Assembly: GCF_018327685.1 (NCBI RefSeq)
Contig: NZ_BNEL01000001.1
Span: 3,410,001 to 3,474,000, forward strand
Origin: Streptomyces sp. TS71-3
Lineage (GTDB): Bacteria > Actinomycetota > Actinomycetes > Streptomycetales > Streptomycetaceae
DNA: 64,000 nucleotides
Reading direction: 5' to 3'
Every line of letters starts with the position of its first letter. Position 1 is the stretch's first letter. The translations under genes were made by a program, and so were the position numbers. Under the pieces are notes generated by a model. It saw only the letters and a list, made by a program, of their open reading frames with translations. It ran no database searches and was not told where the DNA came from. Shown piece by piece: positions 20,503-33,601 of the stretch.

Positions 20503-20955
20503 CTAGTCGCCGGCGCGAAGGTCGGTGACGAGGCGGAATCGTTGCAGAACAGCCGGCGTGGCATCGTCCACGGTGAACTCGGGGTCGTCCAACTCCGCTC
20601 GCATCTCGTCGCTGTGCCAGAACCGCTCGTGGCCGGCCCGCCACTCGGCCACGCTGGTGTCTCCTTCCCCCTCGTCCACCACATGAGGGAGATCCACCTG
20701 CGCCAGCGGGACCACGCGCACGCCGGTCACCTCGATGACGGCGACAGGTCGGTCGTCCGAGTCGATGACCACCGAACGGCTCCCGACTTCCGGCAGGGCT
20801 TCCCCCTCATGCTCGTAGGCGAGGAGGAGCCCTGTCGTGGAGGTCTTGGAACCGTCGAGGATCGCTGCGACGAGCTGGTCGCGCAGGGCGCCGGGGAAGG
20901 CGAACTCGATCCTGGGCAACGAAGCGCGGTTCGGCGAGGCCGCATCGGTCGTCAT
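20503..20955 (-). CDS. ASCH-domain protein
   Basis: A 150-residue ASCH-fold protein (related to PUA domains and thought to bind RNA or modified bases). The sequence EFAFPGALRDQLVAAILDGSKTSTTG contains the conserved GxKTxTxR/G motif (GSKTSTTG), and VIDSDDRPVAVIEVTGVRVVPLAQV is the barrel core. The C-terminal ERFWHSDEM is typical of the ASCH subgroup near YqfB. ATG 20955 has no convincing ribosome binding site. Some ASCH proteins are RNases or amidohydrolases on N4-acetylcytidine; the function here is not determinable. Confidence 0.85.
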   Translation of the reverse strand: MTTDAASPNRASLPRIEFAFPGALRDQLVAAILDGSKTSTTGLLLAYEHEGEALPEVGSRSVVIDSDDRPVAVIEVTGVRVVPLAQVDLPHVVDEGEGDTSVAEWRAGHERFWHSDEMRAELDDPEFTVDDATPAVLQRFRLVTDLRAGD

Positions 20956-21025
20956 GCGGTCACATTGATGGCTCCCTGGCCTGAAGTCCAGGGGTTTCGG
21001 CCTGGTCGTGTACGTGCCCGCAGCC

Positions 21026-21772
21026 TCACATCCGGGATTTCAGCACGTCGACCTCGCAGCCCGGTGCGGACGGGTCGAAGCCGTGGTCGACCAGCCAGCG
21101 AACCCCCAGCAGGCTTCGCAACGACCACCACGCGCGGATCACGGCGCGGTCGACGTCGGTGCCGTAACCGGCGATGACGTCATCGAGGTTTTCCTCGTGT
21201 CCGAGGGTCAGGGTGGCGAGGTCGAACAGGGCGTCACCCGGGCCCGCCTCGGACCAGTCGATGATGCCGGTGACCTCGTCGCCGTCCATGAAAACGTGCT
21301 CGGCCTGAAGGTCGCCGTGCGTGAACGCCGGAGTCCACGGCCGGATCGCGGCCTCGGCGACCTGGCGGTTGCGGGTGACCAGGCCGGCGGGCAGGACACC
21401 CTTTGTCACGAGCAGCTCGCACTCGCGGTCGAGTTCCGCCGCCAGCTCGTCGGGACCCCGGCGGCGCCGGCCGGTCCAGGGCGGCAACGGCGCCTCGTGC
21501 AACCGCCGGATGGCGGCGCCCGCCGCGGCCCACGCCGACGGAGACGCGGTCGACGGCTCACCGAGACGGCCGAGCGCCGTCCCCGGGACGGCGGCGATCG
21601 CGAGCACGGGCGGCTTGCGCCACAGGACCTCCGGAGTCGGGACCGGCACCAGGGCCATCGCCTCGACCTCGACGTCGATGCGCGCCTGATCGGCGTCCAC
21701 CTTCAAGAACACGTCGCCGACGCGCAGGGTCGCACGCTCGGAATGGGCGACGACGACATTGACCTCATCCAT
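21026..21772 (-). CDS. APH-family phosphotransferase
   Basis: A 248-residue aminoglycoside-phosphotransferase-like kinase. The catalytic loop is FTHGDLQAEHVFMDG, in which the usual metal-binding Asn is His (HGDLxxxH), a known variation; the DxD metal motif is GIIDWSEAGPGDALFDLA. The N-lobe is short (FLKVDADQARIDVEVEAM with the ATP-binding Lys). The substrate may be a small molecule rather than a drug, since these genes are common in Streptomyces. ATG 21772 lies 165 bases after the kinase-gene stop. Confidence 0.85.
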   Translation of the reverse strand: MDEVNVVVAHSERATLRVGDVFLKVDADQARIDVEVEAMALVPVPTPEVLWRKPPVLAIAAVPGTALGRLGEPSTASPSAWAAAGAAIRRLHEAPLPPWTGRRRRGPDELAAELDRECELLVTKGVLPAGLVTRNRQVAEAAIRPWTPAFTHGDLQAEHVFMDGDEVTGIIDWSEAGPGDALFDLATLTLGHEENLDDVIAGYGTDVDRAVIRAWWSLRSLLGVRWLVDHGFDPSAPGCEVDVLKSRM

Positions 21773-21936
21773 GGGCGACCAGTGTCCCTGGGACGGTCGC
21801 CGATGTCGCCGGGGTTTTCGCGTGCGATGACGCCGCTGACCGCGTCCCTCCTCCCACCTCCCGCCACCCGGCGGTCTCGTGCACGGCACCAACCTGACCA
21901 GGTCAGGCCCGCCGGCCACGTCAGGAGTCAGGACCC

Positions 21937-24900
21937 CTAAGGAAGCCTCAGGGAGCGCCGGATGCTCTTTCTGAGGATTGTGGCTCCCACCAGTTCCGAG
22001 ACCTCCAGCACCTCGGTTCCGATGGCCAGCGGAATGCTCTGATCGTTCGGAGTCCGCTTCAGCCACCGCCTCCAGTTCCCGACGAGCTGGTAGAAGGAGG
22101 CCCGCGCGTCCAGGGCTTCCCCTGCGTGGGCGAGCAATCGGGTCAGGGCAGAGAGGGAGACGACGAGGCCGGGGAGCCGGTGCTGATTGTCGGGAGCCAT
22201 GTTCTCGTACTGGGAGAGCAGGTCCCGGACGGAGGCCATGTCCTGCTGGAGGCGAGCGGGGTTCACCGGTTCGAGGGGGTACTCCAGTCCCGGGAGATAC
22301 GTCGCATGGGTGCTCGCGGCGAACTCGCTGTGCATCGTCCGGAACCACTTCTCGGTCTCGTCCCGTCGCTTTGCCCGGCGGAGGAACAGGTAATGGTTGT
22401 GCATGAGCGGGGAGAGGCGTGCTGCCCGGTAGGGATCCGCGACGTTTCGGCAGTGCCGGATGGCCTCTTCGTTGACCTCGACGGCGTCGTCCAGCCGTCG
22501 CAGCTCTCCCAGCCAGTAGGCGTGTCGTTGGAGAGCTGCGATCAGCTCGTGGCGGCCCGCCTCCGGGGTGACGTCGGTGATGTGCCGCCGGATTCCCAGG
22601 GCCCGTTCACCGGCCTCGACCGCTGCCTCGATCCTCCCGGCCGCGGCGTGTTCCCTCGCCAGGCTGGAGAGGACCACCGCCTGATAGGGCTTCGCGTCGC
22701 CCGGCCTGAGCTGCCGGGGATCCGCGGTGCGGGCGGCCCGCGCCAGACGCCGAAGCTCACTGCGGACGCTCTCCTCACGCAGGCCGCCGTACCCCAAGGC
22801 GGTCAGCTTGCGCCACAGGAGTTCGACGTCCCGATCGGTCCAGACCTCGCCGGCGTCCTCCGCTGGGGCAGTCTTCTCCGCCCGGCCGGTCCTCTCCGCC
22901 CGGCCGGTCTTCTCCGCCCGGCCGGTCCTCTCCGCCCGGCCGGTCTTCTCCGAGCGGCCGGTCCGCTCCCGGCGTCCGGCCTCCTGGGACCGGGAAGGCC
23001 GGCCGGGACCGCCCGGCAGCGTCGCGTTCCGCTGCTCGGCGCATCGGGCGAGGAAGACCTCAAGATAGGGCTCGATCTCGCTCATCCAGGACTCCGGATC
23101 CCGCGCGGCGAGGTCCCAGTCGAGTTCCCAGACCCGCATGGTGGCGTCGGTGGCGCCGGACACGGCGCGGTTCCCGTCCGGGGTGAGGCTCAGTGCCCAG
23201 ACCGAGTTGGTGTGCCCGGTGAGCGTGCGCAAGCAGCGGCCGGTCGACAGGTCCCAGACGCGGACGGCTCCGTCCGCGCCGGCGGACAGCGCATGGCGGT
23301 CGTCGCCGGTGATGGTCAGCGCATAGACGTCGTCGGTGTGCCCGGTGAGCGTGCGCGTGCACGCGCCGGTGAGCAGATCCCAGACGCGGAGAGGGCCGTC
23401 GTGGTCGGCGGTCACGAGATAGCGGCCGTCGCCGGTGGCGCAACCCAGCCTGACGGAGCCCGAACCGCTGTTGAGGACGCGTGCGCACGATCCGGTCGAC
23501 AGGTCCCAGAGCAGGAGGGCACCGTCGTTGTGCGTGGTCACGACATGCCGCCCGTCGGCGGTCAGGCACAGGACGCTCCCCGAGGGGAAGTTCCCCGCGC
23601 CGTAGGAGATGGAGAAGGTGATCTCGCACTGGCCCGTGACCAGATTCCACACCCGCACGTTTCGATCGCGGTCGCTGGAGACCACGCGCTGACCGTCCGG
23701 CATCGCGTGGATCAGCTCGATACTGGCCGGCTGCTCCCACGTGTGGCGAAGCTCCCAGGATCGGGTGTCCCACACGCAGATGATCTTGAAAAGTGAGGCC
23801 ACCATGTGCGAGCCGTCGGGTGTGAGGCAGAGCGACCGGATGACGGTCGGTTCACTGTTCAACTCCCTGACCGGGCGCCGGCTTGAGAGGTCCCAGAGCT
23901 GCACTTTCCCGTCGTGGCTGCTGGACACGGCGTACGCGCCGTCAGTGGTGAGTCCCACCGCGTCCACGGATTCCAGGAAGCCCGTGAACACCGCCGTGGG
24001 ACGGACCGTCCGCAGGCCGGTGCGCGCACAGTGGTCGTAGAGCTGGTGCCAGGCGTCGACGACGTGCGAGGCGCGCTCGTATCCGGGCTTCTGCCGGGCT
24101 TCCCGGAGAAGGGAGAGGGCGCTGGGGATGTCGCCTTCGGCCTTCGCGTCGAGCGCCCGTTCGACGAGGAGGGCCACCTCCGCCTGCGCTTCCAGGAGGT
24201 CCCCGGAGGAGCGGGGGCGCGAGACCTGGAACGAGGCGGGGACGGCGGCGCGCCATTCCGTGCCGTGCACATCCCCGGACGCGGAGATGTGCAGGACCCG
24301 ACGGCCGCCGGGCTCCAGCCCCGCCGACCTCGCTGCGATGGTGCGGACGCACCGCCCCGTGGCCAGCTCCCACACCCGGGCCGCGTGGTCACGGGTGATC
24401 GCGTGCTCCCCGTCGGCTGTCGCGTACACGGAGCTCAGCGAGCTGCCGTGGGCGAGCGGGGCCCGGACCTGGCGGCCGGTGGCCAGGTCCCACACGCGCA
24501 CCGTGGTGTCGATGCTCCCCGACAGGGAGTAGCGTCCGTCCGGGGTCGTGCAGAGCGACGTCACGCTGTTGGTGTGGCCGGCCAGGACGTGGCGGACGCG
24601 CCCGGTCGCGTAGTCCCAGACCCAGATCAGCCCGCCGCGTGAGCACAGGATGAGGCGGCGGTCGGCGGTGACGCACAGCTCGGCCCCGGCGGCCCCGGCG
24701 AAGCCGAAGGGAACGTAGTCGTCCGGGAGCGCCGGCGCGTCGTCGTAGTCGATCGCGATCACCCGCAGGCAGGCACCGGTTTCCAGGTCCCACTCGCGTA
24801 CGGTGTCGTCCGCCGCGGAGGACAGCACGGTGCGGCGGCCGGGGACGGGGCAGACCGAGAAGACGGATTCGTTGTTCCTGCGCTCGTTCATGACGTGGCC

Positions 24901-26601
24901 CTTGAGGACACGGACACAGCGTCCGGTCGGCACGTCCCAGACGCGGACCGTCCCGTCGCCGCTCGCGGTCAGTGCCTGGCGCCCGTCCGGGGTCAGGGCG
25001 ACGCCGTAGACGGTTTCGCCATGGCCCGCGAGCGTGCACAGCTCTCTGCCGGTGGGGAGCTCCCAGACCGTCACGGGGTTCTGCCCGCCGTCCGCAGCCT
25101 CGGGATCACGGCTGTGCCACCAGGCATGACGGCTGTCCGCGGTCAGTTCCACCGGACTGCCGGTCTCGATGTGGCCGATGAGGTCACCGTGGCCGGTGGC
25201 GTCGCTCTGGCCGATGGGACCACTGGCGCGCCCGCCGGACCCGCGCACCGTGGCGAGCCCCCGTCGAAGGTCCTCTATCTCCGATATCTCCGATATCTCC
25301 GGCGTCTTCGACGGAGGCCGGGACTCCCCGGGCCCCTCGATCAGCGCGGCGGCGGACTCGGCGTCGCCGCGTTCGAGGTGGACGCGGGCGAGCAGGGGAC
25401 GGACGCGGCTGGGGGCGCCGCTGTTCTCGCCCACGGCCTGAAGCTCGTTGAGCAACTCCTCGTCGGTCCTGGCGCCGGAGCGCCACTGGAGCAGCCCGTG
25501 GTTGTAGGCCACCTCGGGGTGCTGCGGGTCGGCGACGGCGGCCTCCTGGAGGAGGACCACCGCCTCGTCGCCCCGGTCGAGGTCCAGGAGCGAGAGGGCC
25601 CGGTTGTTCAGCTCGTCGGCACGCAGTTCGCCTGGGTGCGGCAACGACCGCGGGTAGGGGTCGTCGGCGATGGCGGTGTACAGGGCGGTCAGCTCGCCGA
25701 CGACCTGGGCCATGTCGGGTCGTGTCGCGGGGTCGGTGCGAAGGCACCGTGCCAGCAGGTCGTCCAGGGCCGCCGACACCTCGACCCCTGCCGCCCTGGT
25801 GCGGAACCCGTCGGCGCGGAGCGCGGCGAGCACGGCGCCCGCGGCGGGCCCCGCGCCCCAGGTGATGCCGCCCACGATCATTTCGAGGAGGCTCACGGCG
25901 AAGCTCCACACGTCGCTGCGCCGGCCCACCGCGGAGCGCGTGTACTGCTCGGGGGAGGCGTACGCCCGCGTCATGCCTCCGTAGGACACCCTCAGGGTGT
26001 GGTCACCGTCCGCCGGGATCTCGTCGTACGTTCCGCTCGCGGCATCGGGGACGACGGGCGCCTGGGCGCGCGCCAGCCCGAAGTCGGTGATCTTCACGCT
26101 CCCCGCGCTGTCGAGCAGGATGTTGGCGGGCTTGACGTCCTGGTGGACCACGCCCTGGTCATGGGCGTGGATCAGGCCCCAGGCGGTCTGGATCGCGATG
26201 TCCAGCACGCGGGCCATCACCTCCCGGGGCGCGCCCAGGTAGAGGCGGCCGTCGGCGATCCAGTGCGCCAGGCTTCCCGCGTCCAGGTACTCGACGAAGA
26301 TCCGGGGGACCCCGTCCAGCGTGCGCAGGTAGTGGCAGGTGCACACGTGCGGGTGCGGGCCGAACCCCACCCACGTCTCGGCCTCCCGGATGAACCGCTC
26401 GCGGGCGGCGCCGTCGCGCATCCTGGGCCCGAGCGGCGACTTGACGGCGAGGTCGGTGTCCCAGCCCAGGTGCCTGACCCGGTAGACGACACCCATGCCG
26501 CCCTCGCCCAGGACGGCACGCACCTCGTACGTGTCGGCGATGCGGTCGCCGATGCGCCAGGTCCCCGCCTCTCCCGCCGCCGGCCGTTCAGCTACTGGCA
26601 C
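21937..26601 (-). CDS. Ser/Thr protein kinase with TPR and two WD40 propellers
   Basis: A 1554-residue cytoplasmic Hanks-type kinase. The kinase domain (about 20-290) has the P-loop LGEGGMGVVYRV, the Lys in LAVKSP, HQDVKPANILL as catalytic loop and DFGLAR. TPR-like helices follow (about 320-420). Residues 500-790 and 880-1160 carry two arrays of WD40 repeats with repeated VWDLATGR and LAGH/LTGH words; a helical linker separates them. Residues about 1193-1245 are a GRAE(R/K)T repeat from an 18-base minisatellite (22870-22970). The C-terminal 300 residues are TPR-like. GTG 26601 overlaps the 3' end of the P-loop ATPase gene by 14 bases, so the two are coupled. No membrane anchor is present. The partner and stimulus are unknown. 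Confidence 0.9.
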   Translation of the reverse strand: MPVAERPAAGEAGTWRIGDRIADTYEVRAVLGEGGMGVVYRVRHLGWDTDLAVKSPLGPRMRDGAARERFIREAETWVGFGPHPHVCTCHYLRTLDGVPRIFVEYLDAGSLAHWIADGRLYLGAPREVMARVLDIAIQTAWGLIHAHDQGVVHQDVKPANILLDSAGSVKITDFGLARAQAPVVPDAASGTYDEIPADGDHTLRVSYGGMTRAYASPEQYTRSAVGRRSDVWSFAVSLLEMIVGGITWGAGPAAGAVLAALRADGFRTRAAGVEVSAALDDLLARCLRTDPATRPDMAQVVGELTALYTAIADDPYPRSLPHPGELRADELNNRALSLLDLDRGDEAVVLLQEAAVADPQHPEVAYNHGLLQWRSGARTDEELLNELQAVGENSGAPSRVRPLLARVHLERGDAESAAALIEGPGESRPPSKTPEISEISEIEDLRRGLATVRGSGGRASGPIGQSDATGHGDLIGHIETGSPVELTADSRHAWWHSRDPEAADGGQNPVTVWELPTGRELCTLAGHGETVYGVALTPDGRQALTASGDGTVRVWDVPTGRCVRVLKGHVMNERRNNESVFSVCPVPGRRTVLSSAADDTVREWDLETGACLRVIAIDYDDAPALPDDYVPFGFAGAAGAELCVTADRRLILCSRGGLIWVWDYATGRVRHVLAGHTNSVTSLCTTPDGRYSLSGSIDTTVRVWDLATGRQVRAPLAHGSSLSSVYATADGEHAITRDHAARVWELATGRCVRTIAARSAGLEPGGRRVLHISASGDVHGTEWRAAVPASFQVSRPRSSGDLLEAQAEVALLVERALDAKAEGDIPSALSLLREARQKPGYERASHVVDAWHQLYDHCARTGLRTVRPTAVFTGFLESVDAVGLTTDGAYAVSSSHDGKVQLWDLSSRRPVRELNSEPTVIRSLCLTPDGSHMVASLFKIICVWDTRSWELRHTWEQPASIELIHAMPDGQRVVSSDRDRNVRVWNLVTGQCEITFSISYGAGNFPSGSVLCLTADGRHVVTTHNDGALLLWDLSTGSCARVLNSGSGSVRLGCATGDGRYLVTADHDGPLRVWDLLTGACTRTLTGHTDDVYALTITGDDRHALSAGADGAVRVWDLSTGRCLRTLTGHTNSVWALSLTPDGNRAVSGATDATMRVWELDWDLAARDPESWMSEIEPYLEVFLARCAEQRNATLPGGPGRPSRSQEAGRRERTGRSEKTGRAERTGRAEKTGRAERTGRAEKTAPAEDAGEVWTDRDVELLWRKLTALGYGGLREESVRSELRRLARAARTADPRQLRPGDAKPYQAVVLSSLAREHAAAGRIEAAVEAGERALGIRRHITDVTPEAGRHELIAALQRHAYWLGELRRLDDAVEVNEEAIRHCRNVADPYRAARLSPLMHNHYLFLRRAKRRDETEKWFRTMHSEFAASTHATYLPGLEYPLEPVNPARLQQDMASVRDLLSQYENMAPDNQHRLPGLVVSLSALTRLLAHAGEALDARASFYQLVGNWRRWLKRTPNDQSIPLAIGTEVLEVSELVGATILRKSIRRSLRLP

Positions 26602-28540
26602 CGGAGCCCCCCGAAGACCCTCCGGCGGCGGCCGTCAGCCGCCGCGCCTCGTCCGCGATCCCGGCGCTCACGCTGTCCGCGCCGGCCATGCCGTGCAATC
26701 CGCTCGCCCTGATCTGCGCCGCCAGGGCTCCGAGATAGGTCGCGGCCGCGATGACGTGGTCACCGACGTTGATCTCGCGGCCTTCGTCCAGGGCGTCCGA
26801 CGCCTTCCGCGCGTCGCGCACGATCCGGCTCACCTGGGTGGTGATCTCCTGCCGCGTCTGACCGGGGATGTCCACCGCGCGGCCGATACGGTCGAGGATC
26901 GTCCGGCAGGAGCGCGACAGGTCCTGGAGCAGGCGGTGCTCACGGCCGGCGCCGGGCGACCTGAACGTGGAGTTGAGGACGTATCCCCCGGCGACCCTCG
27001 CCTCGATCGCGCCCAGGACCAGAGGGGTGTACGCGTGGATGTCCACCGCGCTCGTCGCGCCCAGCGCCTCCCGGAAGCACGGGTGGACGTGGAACTCCGA
27101 CTCGTACGGCTGCACGGCCAGGTCGGGGCCTCCCGCGTAGACCACGTCGTTACCGCGCCGGACGCCTATGAAACCGACCGAGTAGAGGGTGTCGACGACA
27201 CCGGGCAGCGTGATCGAGTGCGCGTATGCCGGAAACTGGTTGTGCAGCGTGGTCGCCGTCTGTTCCAGGCGGCTGGCGAGAACGTTCCGCATGACGATGT
27301 ACCCCGTGTTCTGGAAGAGCGGGAAAAGACGCTCCAGGTAGGGGTAGGCAACCAGGTATTCCTGGGACAGGTCCCGGAGCTTCCACTCCGAGAACTGCCG
27401 GGCCGCCGCGACCACGTCCGCCTCGCGTATCCGGTCGTGGCCGTTCTGCACGGCGGTGTCACGCGACAGGTTGAGGTACTGGATGACGTCGCGGGGCCTC
27501 GGGAGCACGCGCCGCAGCAGGAACTCCGTGGTCGGCTCGCCTGCGATCAGGGCGGGAAACAGCTCGGTCCACAACTGGTCGGAGGTCAGCGAGGTGCCGA
27601 CCGACGCGCGTGCCCTGGTGAGCGCCAGTTCCATGAGGGAGTCGTCCGACCAGCCGAGGCGCAGCTCGTCGCCCCGGAACTTGTCGCCGTCCGGGAACGA
27701 GAGGGAGTCGTAGATGTCGGAGCGGAGGAAGACGAGGCAGTGCATCGCGCCGCGGTAGCGGGCCGTGATGTGCTTGGCGGCCAGCAGCAGACCGATGATC
27801 ATCGAGTGGGCGTCCGGCTCGGCCGACCACACCTGTTCGAGCTGGTCGACCAGCAGGAGCAGCGGCTGCTGCCGGTCCGCCCAGTCCAGTTCGGCGAAGG
27901 CGTCGGCGACGCCCTGCTCGACGACTTCGAGCTGGCGGATCGCCTGGGCGCCCTCGGACGGTGCGAGGCTCATCTCCACGCCCGTCCTGATCCCGAACGC
28001 TTCGAGGGAGAGCGACGTCGTCTGGAGCCCGCGGACCATCCCCGCGAGCCGGCCGCCGAGGTCCTGGTTCGACAGCTCGCCGTTGGCCTTCAGGAAGCGC
28101 CGCAGCACCCGGATCGTCCTGTGGTTCCGGAGCCTGCCGGGTGCCCTGGTGGCGTGCGTGACGAGGTGGCGGGCGGCGTGAACCGCGCATATGTAGCGCC
28201 AGACGAGGGATCTGGCGGTGTCGCCCGTGAGGCCCTGAAGCTCGAAGCGGCGCAGCTCGTTGCCCACCGCGTCGTCGGGGGTGATGAGGATCGTGCCTTC
28301 GGGGCCCTCCGGCTGCGTGCCTCGCGGCTGCGTCCCCCGCGTCCCCCGCGCCGCGATCTGCATACAGATCGCGCTCTTTCCGGACCCCTTTCTTCCGATG
28401 ATGAGCATTTTCCTTCCGGATACCGTCGCCTCATAGGCCACGGTCCGAATGAAGCTCTCACGCAGAAGCCCGCCGGCGATGTCCCGCTCGGCGTCCTCGT
28501 ACCCGAAATTCAACCGCTGGAGAGCGGAGGACTCGGCCAA
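26588..28540 (-). CDS. Large P-loop ATPase (Sll1717/STAND-like) paired with the WD40 kinase
   Basis: About 650 residues. RKMLIIGRKGSGKSAICMQ holds Walker A, and QQPLLLLVDQLEQVW is Walker B with the extra acidic residue usual in STAND/KAP-like ATPases; CLVFLRSDIYDSL is a sensor-1-like Arg motif. LNFGYEDAERDI before the P-loop fits the Sll1717-type P-loop ATPases. The C-terminal half (helical, then SSGGSGASS) has no known domain. The TTG at 28540 is preferred for GGGAG seven bases upstream; GTG 28612 and 28603 would add 21-24 residues without a ribosome binding site. The overlap with the kinase gene argues for one functional unit. The architecture resembles bacterial conflict systems (inference). 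Confidence 0.75.
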   Translation of the reverse strand: MAESSALQRLNFGYEDAERDIAGGLLRESFIRTVAYEATVSGRKMLIIGRKGSGKSAICMQIAARGTRGTQPRGTQPEGPEGTILITPDDAVGNELRRFELQGLTGDTARSLVWRYICAVHAARHLVTHATRAPGRLRNHRTIRVLRRFLKANGELSNQDLGGRLAGMVRGLQTTSLSLEAFGIRTGVEMSLAPSEGAQAIRQLEVVEQGVADAFAELDWADRQQPLLLLVDQLEQVWSAEPDAHSMIIGLLLAAKHITARYRGAMHCLVFLRSDIYDSLSFPDGDKFRGDELRLGWSDDSLMELALTRARASVGTSLTSDQLWTELFPALIAGEPTTEFLLRRVLPRPRDVIQYLNLSRDTAVQNGHDRIREADVVAAARQFSEWKLRDLSQEYLVAYPYLERLFPLFQNTGYIVMRNVLASRLEQTATTLHNQFPAYAHSITLPGVVDTLYSVGFIGVRRGNDVVYAGGPDLAVQPYESEFHVHPCFREALGATSAVDIHAYTPLVLGAIEARVAGGYVLNSTFRSPGAGREHRLLQDLSRSCRTILDRIGRAVDIPGQTRQEITTQVSRIVRDARKASDALDEGREINVGDHVIAAATYLGALAAQIRASGLHGMAGADSVSAGIADEARRLTAAAGGSSGGSGASS

Positions 28541-28681
28541 TGACGTACTCCCGCCCCTGGTGATCTCCGGGCAACTCCGTATGGCCCCGGGTTTCGCCGT
28601 CACAGTATGCACGGCTGCGGGTGCGGGGCGTTGCGGTATTCGGGTGGGCGGTGGCGGTGTCCGTGGTCGTCGACTCCGCGT

Positions 28682-30600: not shown

Positions 30601-31809
30601 GTGACGAGGCAGGTCAAGCGGGCTTTCAAGTACCGCTTTTACCCCACGGATGAGCAGGCAGCCGAGCTGTCGCGCACGTTCGGCTGCGTCCGCCTCGTCT
30701 ACAACAAGGCGCTGGAGGACCGCACGCGGGCCTGGTACGGCCAGCAGCGCCGGATCTCCTACGTGCAGTCCTCGGCCGCACTGACGGTGTGGAAGAAGAC
30801 CGAGGAACTGGCCTTCCTGACAGAGGTATCCTCCGTCCCGCTCCAGCAGGCCCTGCGCCACCTTCAGACGGCGTTCGCGAACTTCTTCGCCAAGCGCGCC
30901 AAGTACCCGCGCTTCAAGTCGCGGAAGAGGTCCCGTGCGTCGGCCGAGTACACCCGAAGCGCCTTCACGTGGCGCGACGGGCAACTGACGCTGGCGAAGA
31001 TGACCGAGCCGCTGGACATCCGCTGGTCGCGTCCGCTGCCCGAGGGCACGGTGCCGACCACGGCGACCGTTTCCCGCGACGCGGCGGGACGCTGGTTCGT
31101 ATCCTTGCTGTGCGAGGACACCATCGCCCCGACCCCCGCCACCACGAGCGCGGTCGGTCTGGACGCCGGTATCACCTCCCTGGTGACATTGTCCACCGGG
31201 GAGAAGATCACCAACCCTCGACATGAGCGCCGCGACCGCGCCCGCCTGGCCCGTGCGCAGCGGGAAATGTCGCGGAAGGCGAAAGGCTCGGCGAACCGGG
31301 AAAAAGCCCGCCGCAAGCTCGCTCGCACCCACGCGCGCATCGCCGACCGGCGCCGCGACTTCCTGCACAAGCTGTCGACTCGACTCGCCTGCGAGAACCA
31401 AACAGTCGTGATCGAGGACCTGACCGTGCGCAACCTGCTGAAGAACGGCCGCCTCGCGCGGGCCATCTCGGACGCGGCCTGGACGGAACTGCGCTCCATG
31501 CTGGAGTACAAATGCGCCTGGTACGGGCGCGAACTCGTCGTGATCGACCGCTGGTTCCCCTCCAGCAAGCTGTGCGGGGCCTGCGGCACGGTCGCGGCGA
31601 AGATGCCGCTGAACGTCCGTGAGTGGACGTGCGACTGCGGCACCACGCACGATCGCGACGTGAACGCCGCGAAGAACATTCTGGCCGCCGGGCTGGCGGC
31701 GTCTGCCTGTGGAGACGGTGTAAGACCTCAACGGGAGTCCTCCCGGACGGGGCGGTCGTCGGTGAAGCAGGAACCCCAGCGGGCGACCGCTGGAATCCCC
31801 CGCCTTTAG
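30601..31809 (+). CDS. tnpB: TnpB RNA-guided nuclease
   Basis: A 402-residue RuvC-fold nuclease ancestral to Cas12. The N-terminal helix-turn-helix region is FKYRFYPTDEQAAELSRTFG. The RuvC residues are D188 (GLDAGI), E272 (VIEDL) and D353 (HDRDVNAAKN), and the zinc ribbon is CGAC...CDC, all intact. In this family TnpB cuts DNA guided by an omega-RNA that ends at the element's right end. Here the right-end hairpin is split by an insertion that begins at the last base of the TAG stop, so the protein is intact but its guide-RNA gene is broken. GTG 30601 has GTGAGG upstream. Confidence 0.95.
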   Translation: MTRQVKRAFKYRFYPTDEQAAELSRTFGCVRLVYNKALEDRTRAWYGQQRRISYVQSSAALTVWKKTEELAFLTEVSSVPLQQALRHLQTAFANFFAKRAKYPRFKSRKRSRASAEYTRSAFTWRDGQLTLAKMTEPLDIRWSRPLPEGTVPTTATVSRDAAGRWFVSLLCEDTIAPTPATTSAVGLDAGITSLVTLSTGEKITNPRHERRDRARLARAQREMSRKAKGSANREKARRKLARTHARIADRRRDFLHKLSTRLACENQTVVIEDLTVRNLLKNGRLARAISDAAWTELRSMLEYKCAWYGRELVVIDRWFPSSKLCGACGTVAAKMPLNVREWTCDCGTTHDRDVNAAKNILAAGLAASACGDGVRPQRESSRTGRSSVKQEPQRATAGIPRL

Positions 31810-33601
31810 GACTTCGTTGGGAAATCCGTGATTCGGGCGGGGTGGAGTCGTTGATCTTCCTGTTGCAGTGCTTGCAGGAGGGTGGGGCTGGTGTCGTTGG
31901 AGCCGCGGGCGGTGGGCGGGGTGCCGGAGTTGACCGCGAGGGTGGTGCGGGCGGCGTTCCCGAAGGGAACGCTGGCCGTTCGGGTTCGGGAGGTGCTGGG
32001 GCCGGTGTTCGAGGATGAGGCCTTCGCGGCGGCGTTCCCCCGGCGTGGCCGCCCGGCAGTGTCGCCCGGCGCGCTGGCGCTGGTGTCGGTGTTGCAATAC
32101 GCCGAGGGCTTGTCGGACCGGCAGGCAGCCGACCAGGTCAGGGCGAGGATGGACTGGAAGTTCCTGCTCGGCCTCCATCTGGATGATCCGGGGTTCGACT
32201 TCACCGTCCTGGGAGACTTCCGCTCCCGTCTGCTCGCCCATGGCCTTGAGGAACAGCTCCTGGACACGGTGCTGGAGCGCCTGTCGCAGGCTGGGCTGTT
32301 GCGCGCGGGCGGGCGCCAGCGCACCGACTCCACGCATGTGCTGGCCTCGGTGAGGTCGCTGAACCGGATGGAGTTCGTCGGCGAGACCCTGCGGGCGGCT
32401 TTGGAAGCCCTGGCCGCAGCAGTACCAGACTGGCTCGCCCCGTTGATCGATGCGTCCTGGGCGGAACGCTACGGAGCCAAGATCGACAGCTACCGGTTCC
32501 CGAAAGGCGAGAACGTCCGCCAGGAGTGGGCCGAGCAGGTCGGCAGGGACGGCTTCACCATCCTGGAGGCCGTCGGTCATTCCACCGGCCTGCCCTGGCT
32601 GCGGGAGGTCCCGGCAGTAAAGACCCTTCGCCATGCCTGGGAGCAGCAATATCACCGGGACGGACAGGAGGTGTGCTGGCGGGAGGGCAAGGACCTCCCG
32701 CCGGGCAGAAAGCGCCTGGCCTCCCCCTACGACCCCGACGCGCGTTACGGCGTCAAGCGCGGCTCGGGCTGGACCGGGTTCAAGACGCACCTGACCGAGA
32801 CCTGCGAACCCGATGCGCTTCACGTGATCACCAATGTGGAGACGACCAGCGCGAACGTCGATGACGCCGAGATGACTCAGGTCATCCATCAGCACCTGGG
32901 TAAGCGCCAGTTGCTGCCGGACGAGCACATCGTGGACGCCGGCTACGTCACCGCGGCCCACATCCTGACAGCCCGCGACGACCACAACATCACCCTGCTC
33001 GGCCCGGTCGGCGCCGATACCCACCACACCAAGCGCGGTGACGGCGACCAGAGCCCGGACCTGACCCAGGCCGCCTTCCACGTGGACTGGGACGCGAAGC
33101 AGGTCACCTGCCCCGTAGGAGCGGTCAGCGTCACATGGTCCGACCAGCGCAAACCCAGCGGCACCCCCATCACCCGGGTCCACTTCACGCGCGAGGACTG
33201 CGATCCTTGTCCGCTGCGGTCCCGCTGCACCAAGGCCACGAACGGGAAGTACGGCCGGAGCCTGACACTCCTGCCCCGTGACCAGCAGGAAGTCCTGGCC
33301 CAGCAGCGGGCCGAGCAGCGGACCGAGGAATGGAAGGCCCGCTACGACATCCGCGCCGGCGTCGAAGGCACAATCTCCCAGGCCGCCCGCCGCACCCGCC
33401 TCCGGCGCACGCCCTACCACGGCCAGCCCAAGACCCATCTCGCGAACCTCCTCTCGGCCGCCGCCATCAACCTCATCCGCCTCGACGCCTGGACCACCGG
33501 CCTCCAGCCAGGAGGAACCCACACCTCCCACCTCGCCCGACTCGCCCTCGCCGCATGACCAGACCGATACGCCCCCGTCTGCAGATTTCCCAACGAAGTC
33601 C
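31809..33601 (+). mobile_element. IS1182-family insertion sequence
   Basis: Inverted repeats are 18 bases: GGACTTCGTTGGGAAATC at the left and its exact complement at the right. The element is about 1.79 kb with one transposase. The target is the loop TTTA of the TnpB-element hairpin, duplicated at 31805-31808 and 33602-33605; because G/C flank it, a 6-base duplication CTTTAG with 17-base repeats is equally consistent. Confidence 0.85.
31891..33558 (+). CDS. IS1182-family transposase
   Basis: A 555-residue DDE transposase. The N-terminal domain (VSPGALALVSVLQYAEGLSDRQAADQVRARMDWKFLLGL, in parts) is the IS1182-type DUF772 region. Catalytic acids are in RTDSTHV, HIVDAGYVT and IRAGVEGTISQ; a cysteine cluster CDPCPLRSRC lies before the last of them. 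The reading frame is intact, so the element may still be active. The GTG at 31891 is preferred since GGAGG is nine bases upstream; GTG 31882 touches that site. Confidence 0.92.
   Translation: MSLEPRAVGGVPELTARVVRAAFPKGTLAVRVREVLGPVFEDEAFAAAFPRRGRPAVSPGALALVSVLQYAEGLSDRQAADQVRARMDWKFLLGLHLDDPGFDFTVLGDFRSRLLAHGLEEQLLDTVLERLSQAGLLRAGGRQRTDSTHVLASVRSLNRMEFVGETLRAALEALAAAVPDWLAPLIDASWAERYGAKIDSYRFPKGENVRQEWAEQVGRDGFTILEAVGHSTGLPWLREVPAVKTLRHAWEQQYHRDGQEVCWREGKDLPPGRKRLASPYDPDARYGVKRGSGWTGFKTHLTETCEPDALHVITNVETTSANVDDAEMTQVIHQHLGKRQLLPDEHIVDAGYVTAAHILTARDDHNITLLGPVGADTHHTKRGDGDQSPDLTQAAFHVDWDAKQVTCPVGAVSVTWSDQRKPSGTPITRVHFTREDCDPCPLRSRCTKATNGKYGRSLTLLPRDQQEVLAQQRAEQRTEEWKARYDIRAGVEGTISQAARRTRLRRTPYHGQPKTHLANLLSAAAINLIRLDAWTTGLQPGGTHTSHLARLALAA

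What the first reader, a model, noticed from the sequence alone, without database searches (positions are those of the whole stretch)
21937..28540. Coupled P-loop ATPase and WD40/TPR Ser/Thr kinase: candidate conflict or signalling system
Seen: two same-strand genes overlap by 14 bases. The first encodes a Sll1717/STAND-like ATPase with intact Walker motifs, the second a 1554-residue Hanks kinase with two WD40 arrays and TPR segments. Known: STAND-type ATPases and WD40/TPR modules are common in bacterial conflict systems of multicellular bacteria, and Ser/Thr kinases (for example Stk2) act as antiphage effectors. Inference: the ATPase may sense or assemble, and the kinase with its large protein-binding surface may be scaffold and effector. 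This exact pairing is not one I recognise as described.
Basis: partly seen in the sequence, partly recalled or inferred. Interest (0 to 1): 0.75.

Follow-up and report, generated by a model that had tools for sequence, protein, structure and literature searches.

The report
ATPase-kinase signalling cassette in Streptomyces
Two overlapping Streptomyces genes encode an ATP-powered switch protein and a large protein kinase; relatives show that this type of switch repeatedly travels with one or another intact kinase, which suggests a two-part signalling device of still unknown purpose.

Summary
In detail: an Sll1717-family P-loop ATPase (26588-28540, minus strand) overlaps by 14 bases a 1554-aa WD40 Ser/Thr kinase (21937-26601). 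The pairing is not chance. Of 54 Streptomyces-type relatives, 37 have a kinase domain within 5 kb (32 kinases within 2.5 kb, about 1 expected); 12 of the 37 share one site beside argS. Partner kinases form separate clades (WD40; downstream kinases; divergent kinases) plus singletons near Hsp70 or with TerD, and keep catalytic motifs. In four genomes ATPase plus WD40 kinase form a ~6 kb unit, 93-95% identical, in unrelated flanks. So the ATPase is the constant part and the kinase the exchangeable one; the window's kinase family mostly occurs without the ATPase (20 of 24 loci). Sister ATPases of Pseudonocardiales end instead in a RHIM-like amyloid motif, and three loci hold a neighbouring NB-ARC/TPR receptor with a similar N-terminus. 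Best reading: a switch ATPase controlled by a dedicated kinase (or, elsewhere, by a receptor). A conflict role is plausible but not supported by neighbours: 137 neighbour proteins gave no defence-island signal. Novelty: new variant of a known kind.

The parts
26588..28540 (-). Sll1717-family P-loop ATPase, 650 aa (TTG start; a longer GTG frame begins at 28612)
27341..28540 (-). alpha/beta P-loop (AAA+/ORC-Cdc6-like) core, residues 1-400
   Evidence: AlphaFold model pLDDT 87.5; Foldseek/VIA matches to ORC/Cdc6, TnsC, MuB, BrxC
28373..28396 (-). Walker A, GRKGSGKS, residues 49-56
27842..27862 (-). Walker B, LLLLVDQ, residues 227-233
27056..27343 (-). winged-helix-like domain, residues 400-495
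   Evidence: secondary structure of the model; the domain name is my reading
26621..26950 (-). C-terminal four-helix bundle, residues 531-640; absent from the RHIM-tailed relatives
   Evidence: generic bundle in PDB
26591..26626 (-). Ser/Gly-rich disordered tail, residues 639-650, candidate phospho-acceptor (inference)
   Evidence: tail in relatives; pLDDT under 50 from 642
26588..26601 (-). 14-base gene overlap; Shine-Dalgarno-like purine runs for the kinase lie in the ATPase tail codons
21937..26601 (-). WD40 Ser/Thr protein kinase, 1554 aa
25699..26529 (-). protein kinase domain, residues 25-301, catalytic motifs present
24367..25074 (-). first WD40 array, about residues 510-745
23119..23997 (-). 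second WD40 array, about residues 869-1161
21940..23124 (-). C-terminal region, residues 1160-1554, with one weak TPR match

Best explanation
The two genes make a two-part signalling module. The Sll1717-family ATPase is the constant switch: an ORC/Cdc6-like P-loop core with a winged-helix-like part, a helical bundle and a flexible Ser/Gly tail, expected to change its assembly state with ATP. The overlapping gene supplies a dedicated Ser/Thr kinase with intact catalytic motifs whose WD40 propellers form the sensing or docking surface. On a cue, the kinase phosphorylates the ATPase (the Ser/Gly tail or bundle is the first candidate site) and so changes its oligomeric or ATPase state; the ATPase passes the signal on. 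Other lineages drive the same ATPase with other kinases (a downstream kinase with a long C-terminal extension, a kinase made with an unknown 600-aa protein, a kinase plus Hsp70 protein, a TerD-kinase) or, in Pseudonocardiales, probably with an NB-ARC/TPR receptor through a RHIM-like amyloid motif. Shown: pairing, recurrence, intact motifs, exchange of the C-terminus. Inferred: phosphorylation, its direction and site, the output.
For: Kinase domain within 5 kb of 37 of 54 Streptomyces-type ATPases; 32 kinase domains within 2.5 kb against 1.1 expected from the density at 5-10 kb; 25 of the 37 are outside the shared argS site. Own genome: 42 such kinases in 9.79 Mb. Partner kinases form three separate, well-supported clades plus singletons, the ATPases one family. 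Every kinase row printed has HRD or HQD and DFG; a G-loop pattern was found in all but 6 of its 47 rows. Four genomes share an ATPase+kinase unit of about 6 kb at 93-95% identity without similar flanks, in 5 of 6 pairs compared, apart from one 641-bp match between L076 and L077. In L081 the ATPase is split and the neighbouring kinase lacks part of its catalytic region. The 14-base overlap suggests co-translation. L112 and L124 ATPases have a codirectional NB-ARC/TPR neighbour with a RHIM-like N-terminus, L129 a divergent one.
Against: No substrate, phosphosite or interaction was tested. 17 of 54 Streptomyces-type ATPases have no kinase within 5 kb (one, L082, at a contig end; L081 and L134 broken), among them L072-L075, which are among the closest by identity; most of the 17 keep the Ser/Gly tail, so the tail may serve something else. 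The window-type WD40 kinase lacks the ATPase in 20 of 24 loci and 3 of 3 further ones. 12 of 37 linked loci share one argS site and are not independent.
Confidence: 0.5

Rival explanations
1. Anti-phage or cell-death system: the ATPase (or kinase) is a toxic effector released by the partner on infection, in the style of NLR/STAND or kinase defence systems.
For: Rare, patchy gene: 13 of 199 genus genomes at E<=1e-30, 9 of 197 order and 1 of 396 phylum genomes at E<=1e-60, the own one counted each time. RHIM-like tails and NB-ARC/TPR neighbours in Pseudonocardiales, the layout described for bacterial amyloid signalosomes with a proposed cell-death role (PMC7889193, passages). The pair sits in unrelated flanks in four genomes.
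Against: PADLOC on 137 neighbours of 28 ATPase loci found no family matching more than one protein. No known effector domain; the bundle resembles only generic bundles. 12 of 37 linked loci sit at one fixed argS site.
Confidence: 0.3
2. Stress or developmental signalling: the pair tunes morphology or metabolism, as other Streptomyces kinases do, and has nothing to do with conflict.
For: The L019 partner kinase has a DivIVA-domain hit above cut-off (TIGR03544, 26.3 bits, cut-off 22) and a partial Scy-like match far below its cut-off (98.5 against 1040); Hsp70 and TerD partners are stress-related by family name.
Against: Patchy distribution and appearance in unrelated flanks do not fit a core function.
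Confidence: 0.3
3. The two genes are unrelated neighbours; the ATPase acts alone and kinases are near because such genes collect in accessory regions.
For: 17 of 54 ATPases lack a kinase nearby; the window's kinase family mostly lives elsewhere.
Against: 32 observed against 1.1 expected; separate kinase clades; two-gene unit with shared ends; joint decay in L081.
Confidence: 0.08

Closest known systems
NCBIfam NF047389, P-loop ATPase Sll1717 family
   Same: Window ATPase is a clear member (347 bits, cut-off 75); many relatives carry this name.
   Different: No paper in the library held names Sll1717, so kinase partners, the Ser/Gly tail and RHIM-like tails of this family were not found described there.
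WD40 Ser/Thr kinases (PkwA type)
   Same: Kinase plus WD40 repeats in one protein, known since PkwA in 1996 and reported in many bacteria (PMC5587647, passages); 1290 relatives at E<=1e-60.
   Different: Here paired and overlapping with a switch ATPase.
Bacterial amyloid signalosomes (NLR plus BELL, CHAT or TIR effector; BASS3 is the RHIM-like motif)
   Same: Relatives of the window ATPase carry a RHIM-like motif near the C-terminus; receptors with a similar N-terminus neighbour the L112, L124 and L129 ATPases.
   Different: The partner is a P-loop ATPase, not BELL, CHAT or TIR (the partners named in PMC7889193, passages); the window protein has no such motif by HMM. Membership of BASS3 itself was not tested with the published profiles.
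NTP-dependent ternary conflict systems (Kaur 2020)
   Same: Multicellular actinobacteria, NTPases, kinases and repeat proteins (PMC7159879, passages).
   Different: No vWA, MoxR or VMAP gene among the ten neighbours scanned; that paper says most of its kinase domains are disrupted, these have the motifs.
MADS defence system (MAD6 kinase, MAD8)
   Same: Kinase domain hits MAD6 models; faint MAD8 match of the ATPase (E 0.0045).
   Different: MAD6 score 104.5 against a cut-off of 460; generic kinase similarity; no companion seen among the ten neighbours scanned by Pfam.

Membership tests
Sll1717 P-loop ATPase (NF047389) | profile score above curated cut-off over the whole model | tested here: met
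   347 bits over positions 1-454, cut-off 75
STAND NTPase (nSTAND1, PF20703) | score above Pfam gathering cut-off | tested here: not met
   24.3 bits against 27.1; many relatives carry PF20703 in precomputed annotation
WD40 Ser/Thr kinase | protein kinase domain plus WD40 repeats in one chain | tested here: met
   catalytic motifs
MADS defence system | MAD6 kinase above equivalog cut-off | tested here: not met
   104.5 bits against 460
MADS defence system | companion mad genes nearby | tested here: inconclusive
   ten neighbours scanned by Pfam show transporter parts, regulators, hydrolase, ASCH, APH, OmdA, luciferase-like and transposase; genes further away not scanned
VMAP/iSTAND ternary conflict systems | vWA, MoxR or VMAP component in the locus | tested here: inconclusive
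   none among the ten neighbours scanned; genes further away not scanned
BASS amyloid signalosome | RHIM-like/BASS motif in the window ATPase | tested here: not met
   window ATPase not among hits of the RHIM-like HMM; published BASS profiles not available here
Two-gene ATPase-kinase module described here | ATPase and kinase with intact motifs adjacent more often than chance | tested here: met
Kinase-driven ATPase switch | phosphorylation of the ATPase by the partner kinase | not testable with these tools
   needs biochemistry

The most novel reading that the evidence does not exclude
Actinobacterial Sll1717-family ATPases are a common switch-effector that different upstream sensors plug into: Ser/Thr kinases of several unrelated kinds in Streptomyces, and NB-ARC/TPR receptors through RHIM-like amyloid templating in Pseudonocardiales. 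The C-terminus after the winged helix is the exchangeable input port (helical bundle plus Ser/Gly tail for kinases, RHIM-like motif for receptors), giving a kinase-driven, receptor-independent route into a machinery otherwise read as an amyloid signalosome.
Probability: 0.35. Interest if true: 0.78.

Novelty: new variant of a known kind. Interest (0 to 1): 0.55.

Why it matters
This genome alone has 42 Ser/Thr kinase domains; that most such kinases lack a known substrate is recalled, not looked up. A kinase that repeatedly travels with one ATPase family hands over a testable kinase-substrate pair. The RHIM-like tails on sister ATPases bear on a question posed in PMC7889193 (passages), whether signalling amyloids occur in bacteria outside the NLR/executor layouts searched so far, and would add a P-loop ATPase to the partners of such receptors.

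Tried and rejected
Defence island: the script listed 145 proteins within three genes of 28 ATPase loci, after leaving out kinases and ORFs under 110 or over 1300 aa; 8 were dropped to fit the size limit (seven large ones and window 21008-21940 on the plus strand, which is antisense to the APH gene; that APH gene was therefore not scanned with PADLOC), so 137 were scanned. 65 families matched, none in more than one protein, 25 shown: GajB/UvrD-like helicase, TAP-like protein, Cas12f/TnpB, Csx1, PDC-M37B, DolB, RTasHel. Rejected as support for defence. One dropped protein (L091:7452-9974) was scanned, no hit.

Ser/Gly tail as a by-product of the kinase ribosome-binding site: rejected, since it is kept where the kinase domain starts 66 bases or more downstream. 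Viral collection: one distant relative. Loci L159-L165 have the contig lengths of loci already held and were not counted; L016, L019, L020, L022 and L024-L027 were dropped on the same ground. L017, L018, L021 and L023 were checked against the 77 named loci and are distinct; the 77 were not checked among themselves (L113/L115 and L103/L104 are near-copies). The ATPase tree (59 rows) left out L018, the broken copies and short rows. Both trees are quick IQ-TREE runs without bootstrap, and both printed long-branch warnings.
Full report
What is there. The window lies in a 9.79 Mb genome whose nearest named matches are Streptomyces. Two minus-strand genes overlap by 14 bases: an ATPase at 26588-28540 and a kinase at 21937-26601. 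Codon-position G+C supports both. The ATPase matches NCBIfam NF047389, Sll1717 family, at 347 bits; STAND models match below cut-off. The kinase has one Hanks-type domain, two WD40 arrays and weak TPR matches. Neighbours scanned are an APH-type phosphotransferase, an ASCH protein, an OmdA/YdeI protein, a luciferase-like oxidoreductase, transporter and regulator genes and a DDE transposase, and an OrfB/TnpB-type transposase gene; none is a known defence companion.

Is the pairing more than chance? The ATPase was found (E<=1e-30) in 13 of 199 genomes of the genus including the own one; with the alignment at E<=1e-60 in 9 of 197 of the order and 1 of 396 of the phylum sample, the own one included each time. 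A scan of GTDB genomes gave 77 loci. With the window and four further genomes, checked as distinct from the 77, these are 82 loci. 54 are Streptomyces-type copies (700 bits or more in the profile, plus four broken copies; two Kitasatospora and one Micromonospora among them). Of these, 37 have a kinase domain of at least 100 bits within 5 kb, by the nearest one: 21 downstream on the same strand (the window at 41 bases from domain to domain, 18 within 200 bases, L111 and L093 further off), 6 downstream on the opposite strand (one of them, L105, also has a divergent upstream kinase), 10 upstream and divergent. Within 2.5 kb there are 32 kinase domains; the density at 5-10 kb predicts 1.1. The own genome has 42 such domains, one per 233 kb. 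Of the other 28 loci, 2 have a kinase (L126, L130). 12 of the 37 share one site beside arginyl- and lysyl-tRNA synthetase genes, so the Poisson value does not count independent events; 25 lie elsewhere.

Independence. The ATPase tree groups the arrangements: downstream kinases, divergent kinases, and the convergent WD40 kinases (100), with the window outside the last group (95). The kinase-domain tree puts the partners into three supported clades: a WD40 clade on a long stem, shared with WD40 kinases that have no ATPase, a divergent clade and a downstream clade (100 each); singletons beside an Hsp70 protein (L093), with TerD (L089) and others lie apart (domains). Both trees are quick ones and warn of long branches. 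So one ATPase family has met several kinase lineages. In L018, L076, L077 and L017 the ATPase and the convergent WD40 kinase form a unit of about 6 kb at 93-95% identity; in the five of six pairs compared the flanks do not match, except for one 641-bp stretch between L076 and L077; in L017 about 1.2 kb of other DNA interrupts the kinase. In L081 the ATPase is split and the kinase next to it lacks part of its catalytic region. In L080 the ATPase is followed by a 263-aa protein that matches residues 424-652 of the L087 partner kinase (67% over 229 aa), outside that kinase's catalytic domain.

The reverse test. The window-type kinase domain (E<=1e-50) was found in 23 of 199 genus genomes, 24 loci; four are beside the ATPase (own, G111, G124, G197) and in 20 no ATPase was found in the DNA held, about 20 kb each (10 kb with the kinase at the contig end in L061). 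Three more loci from 392 genus genomes at E<=1e-95 also lack it. Some of these kinases stand next to DUF7019/SAVMC3_10250 proteins (Pfam-confirmed in L052 and L065) or to a second kinase (FHA domain confirmed in L059 and L064). The kinase family is large: 1290 proteins at E<=1e-60, with four relatives aligned over 99% of the length at 52-67% identity.

The sister branch. ATPases of Lentzea and Actinokineospora (Pseudonocardiales), Solihabitans and Catenulispora lack the bundle and end in a RHIM-like stretch, for example NNVITGDVVGSAMQFGTVSGNIVFG in L112. An HMM from six such tails finds, among 18,924 ORFs of all loci, the N-terminus of an NB-ARC/TPR protein divergent from a broken ATPase in L129 (Saccharothrix) as the best non-training hit (E 8.7e-6); the NB-ARC/TPR protein ending 45 bases upstream of the L112 ATPase is similar by eye but scores E 2.6. 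L124 has a near-identical protein. The L129 ATPase tail itself was not seen. Of the 120 listed closest relatives of the L112 ATPase, 15 carry the motif at E<=0.01 (14 near the C-terminus, P0169 inside), 58 have a Ser/Gly-rich end and 47 neither by the script's rule. P0169 has about 140 further residues behind the motif, ending Gly-rich. A reversed-sequence control gave no hit below E 1.7. A motif shared by receptor N-terminus and partner C-terminus is the layout described for bacterial amyloid signalosomes, whose partners are BELL, less often CHAT or TIR (PMC7889193, passages).

Reading. The ATPase is the fixed part; what drives it is exchanged. In the window this is a WD40 kinase made from an overlapping gene. 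I consider the functional pairing well supported (about 0.85), kinase-to-ATPase direction likely (about 0.5) and a conflict role open (about 0.3). PADLOC on 137 of 145 listed neighbour proteins gave no island signal.

Literature. Sll1717 is in no paper of the library (with P-loop ATPase). The search Streptomyces, WD40, protein kinase, phage defense returned only PMC7159879. BASS3 with amyloid signaling, Actinobacteria, effector domains and ATPase (four of five) returned only PMC8195603. Passages of these two papers do not describe this pair (passages only). PMC12261475 has no occurrence of ATPase or P-loop. Further searches. The library holds open-licence papers only, and the original BASS paper (Dyrka 2020) was not read, so novelty is stated with that limit.

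Noticed in passing
L112:7180-11438, L124:7314-11572, L129:7017-10852: Sll1717-family ATPase beside an NB-ARC/TPR protein, with RHIM-like motifs at the ATPase C-terminus (L112, L124) and at the NB-ARC/TPR N-terminus (all three; weak by the strict HMM test in L112).
   Followed up: partly
window 30601-31809 and 31882-33558: An OrfB/TnpB-type gene with a Cas12f1-like TNB domain (Pfam) next to a DDE transposase.
   Followed up: partly
window 21026-21763 and 20503-20955: APH-type phosphotransferase about 170 bases downstream of the kinase gene (its start not verified), then an ASCH-domain protein; possible operon continuation.
   Followed up: no
L052, L065, L066, L070 (kinase loci): Gene of one family (DUF7019/SAVMC3_10250, Pfam-confirmed in L052 and L065) directly upstream of WD40 kinases related to the window's; another recurrent partner of unknown function.
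   Followed up: partly
L055, L057, L059, L064, L066, L069: WD40 kinase next to a second Ser/Thr kinase (FHA domain confirmed in L059 and L064): kinase-kinase pairs.
   Followed up: no
L096-L098, L101-L106, L128 (for example L096:8128-9876): A family of about 600 aa without a Pfam match above cut-off, nor NCBIfam or PADLOC match for the member tested; reads as coiled-coil start and hydrophobic segments near the end; overlaps a kinase gene divergent from the ATPase.
   Followed up: partly
L093:11949-16451: 1500-aa protein with an Hsp70 domain between ATPase and kinase genes on the same strand.
   Followed up: no
L017:5084-6248: About 1.2 kb of other DNA interrupts the WD40 kinase of an otherwise conserved ATPase-kinase unit.
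   Followed up: no
G000:C3:231465-232028: A second, distant Sll1717-type match in the own genome (36.9 bits, below cut-off).
   Followed up: no
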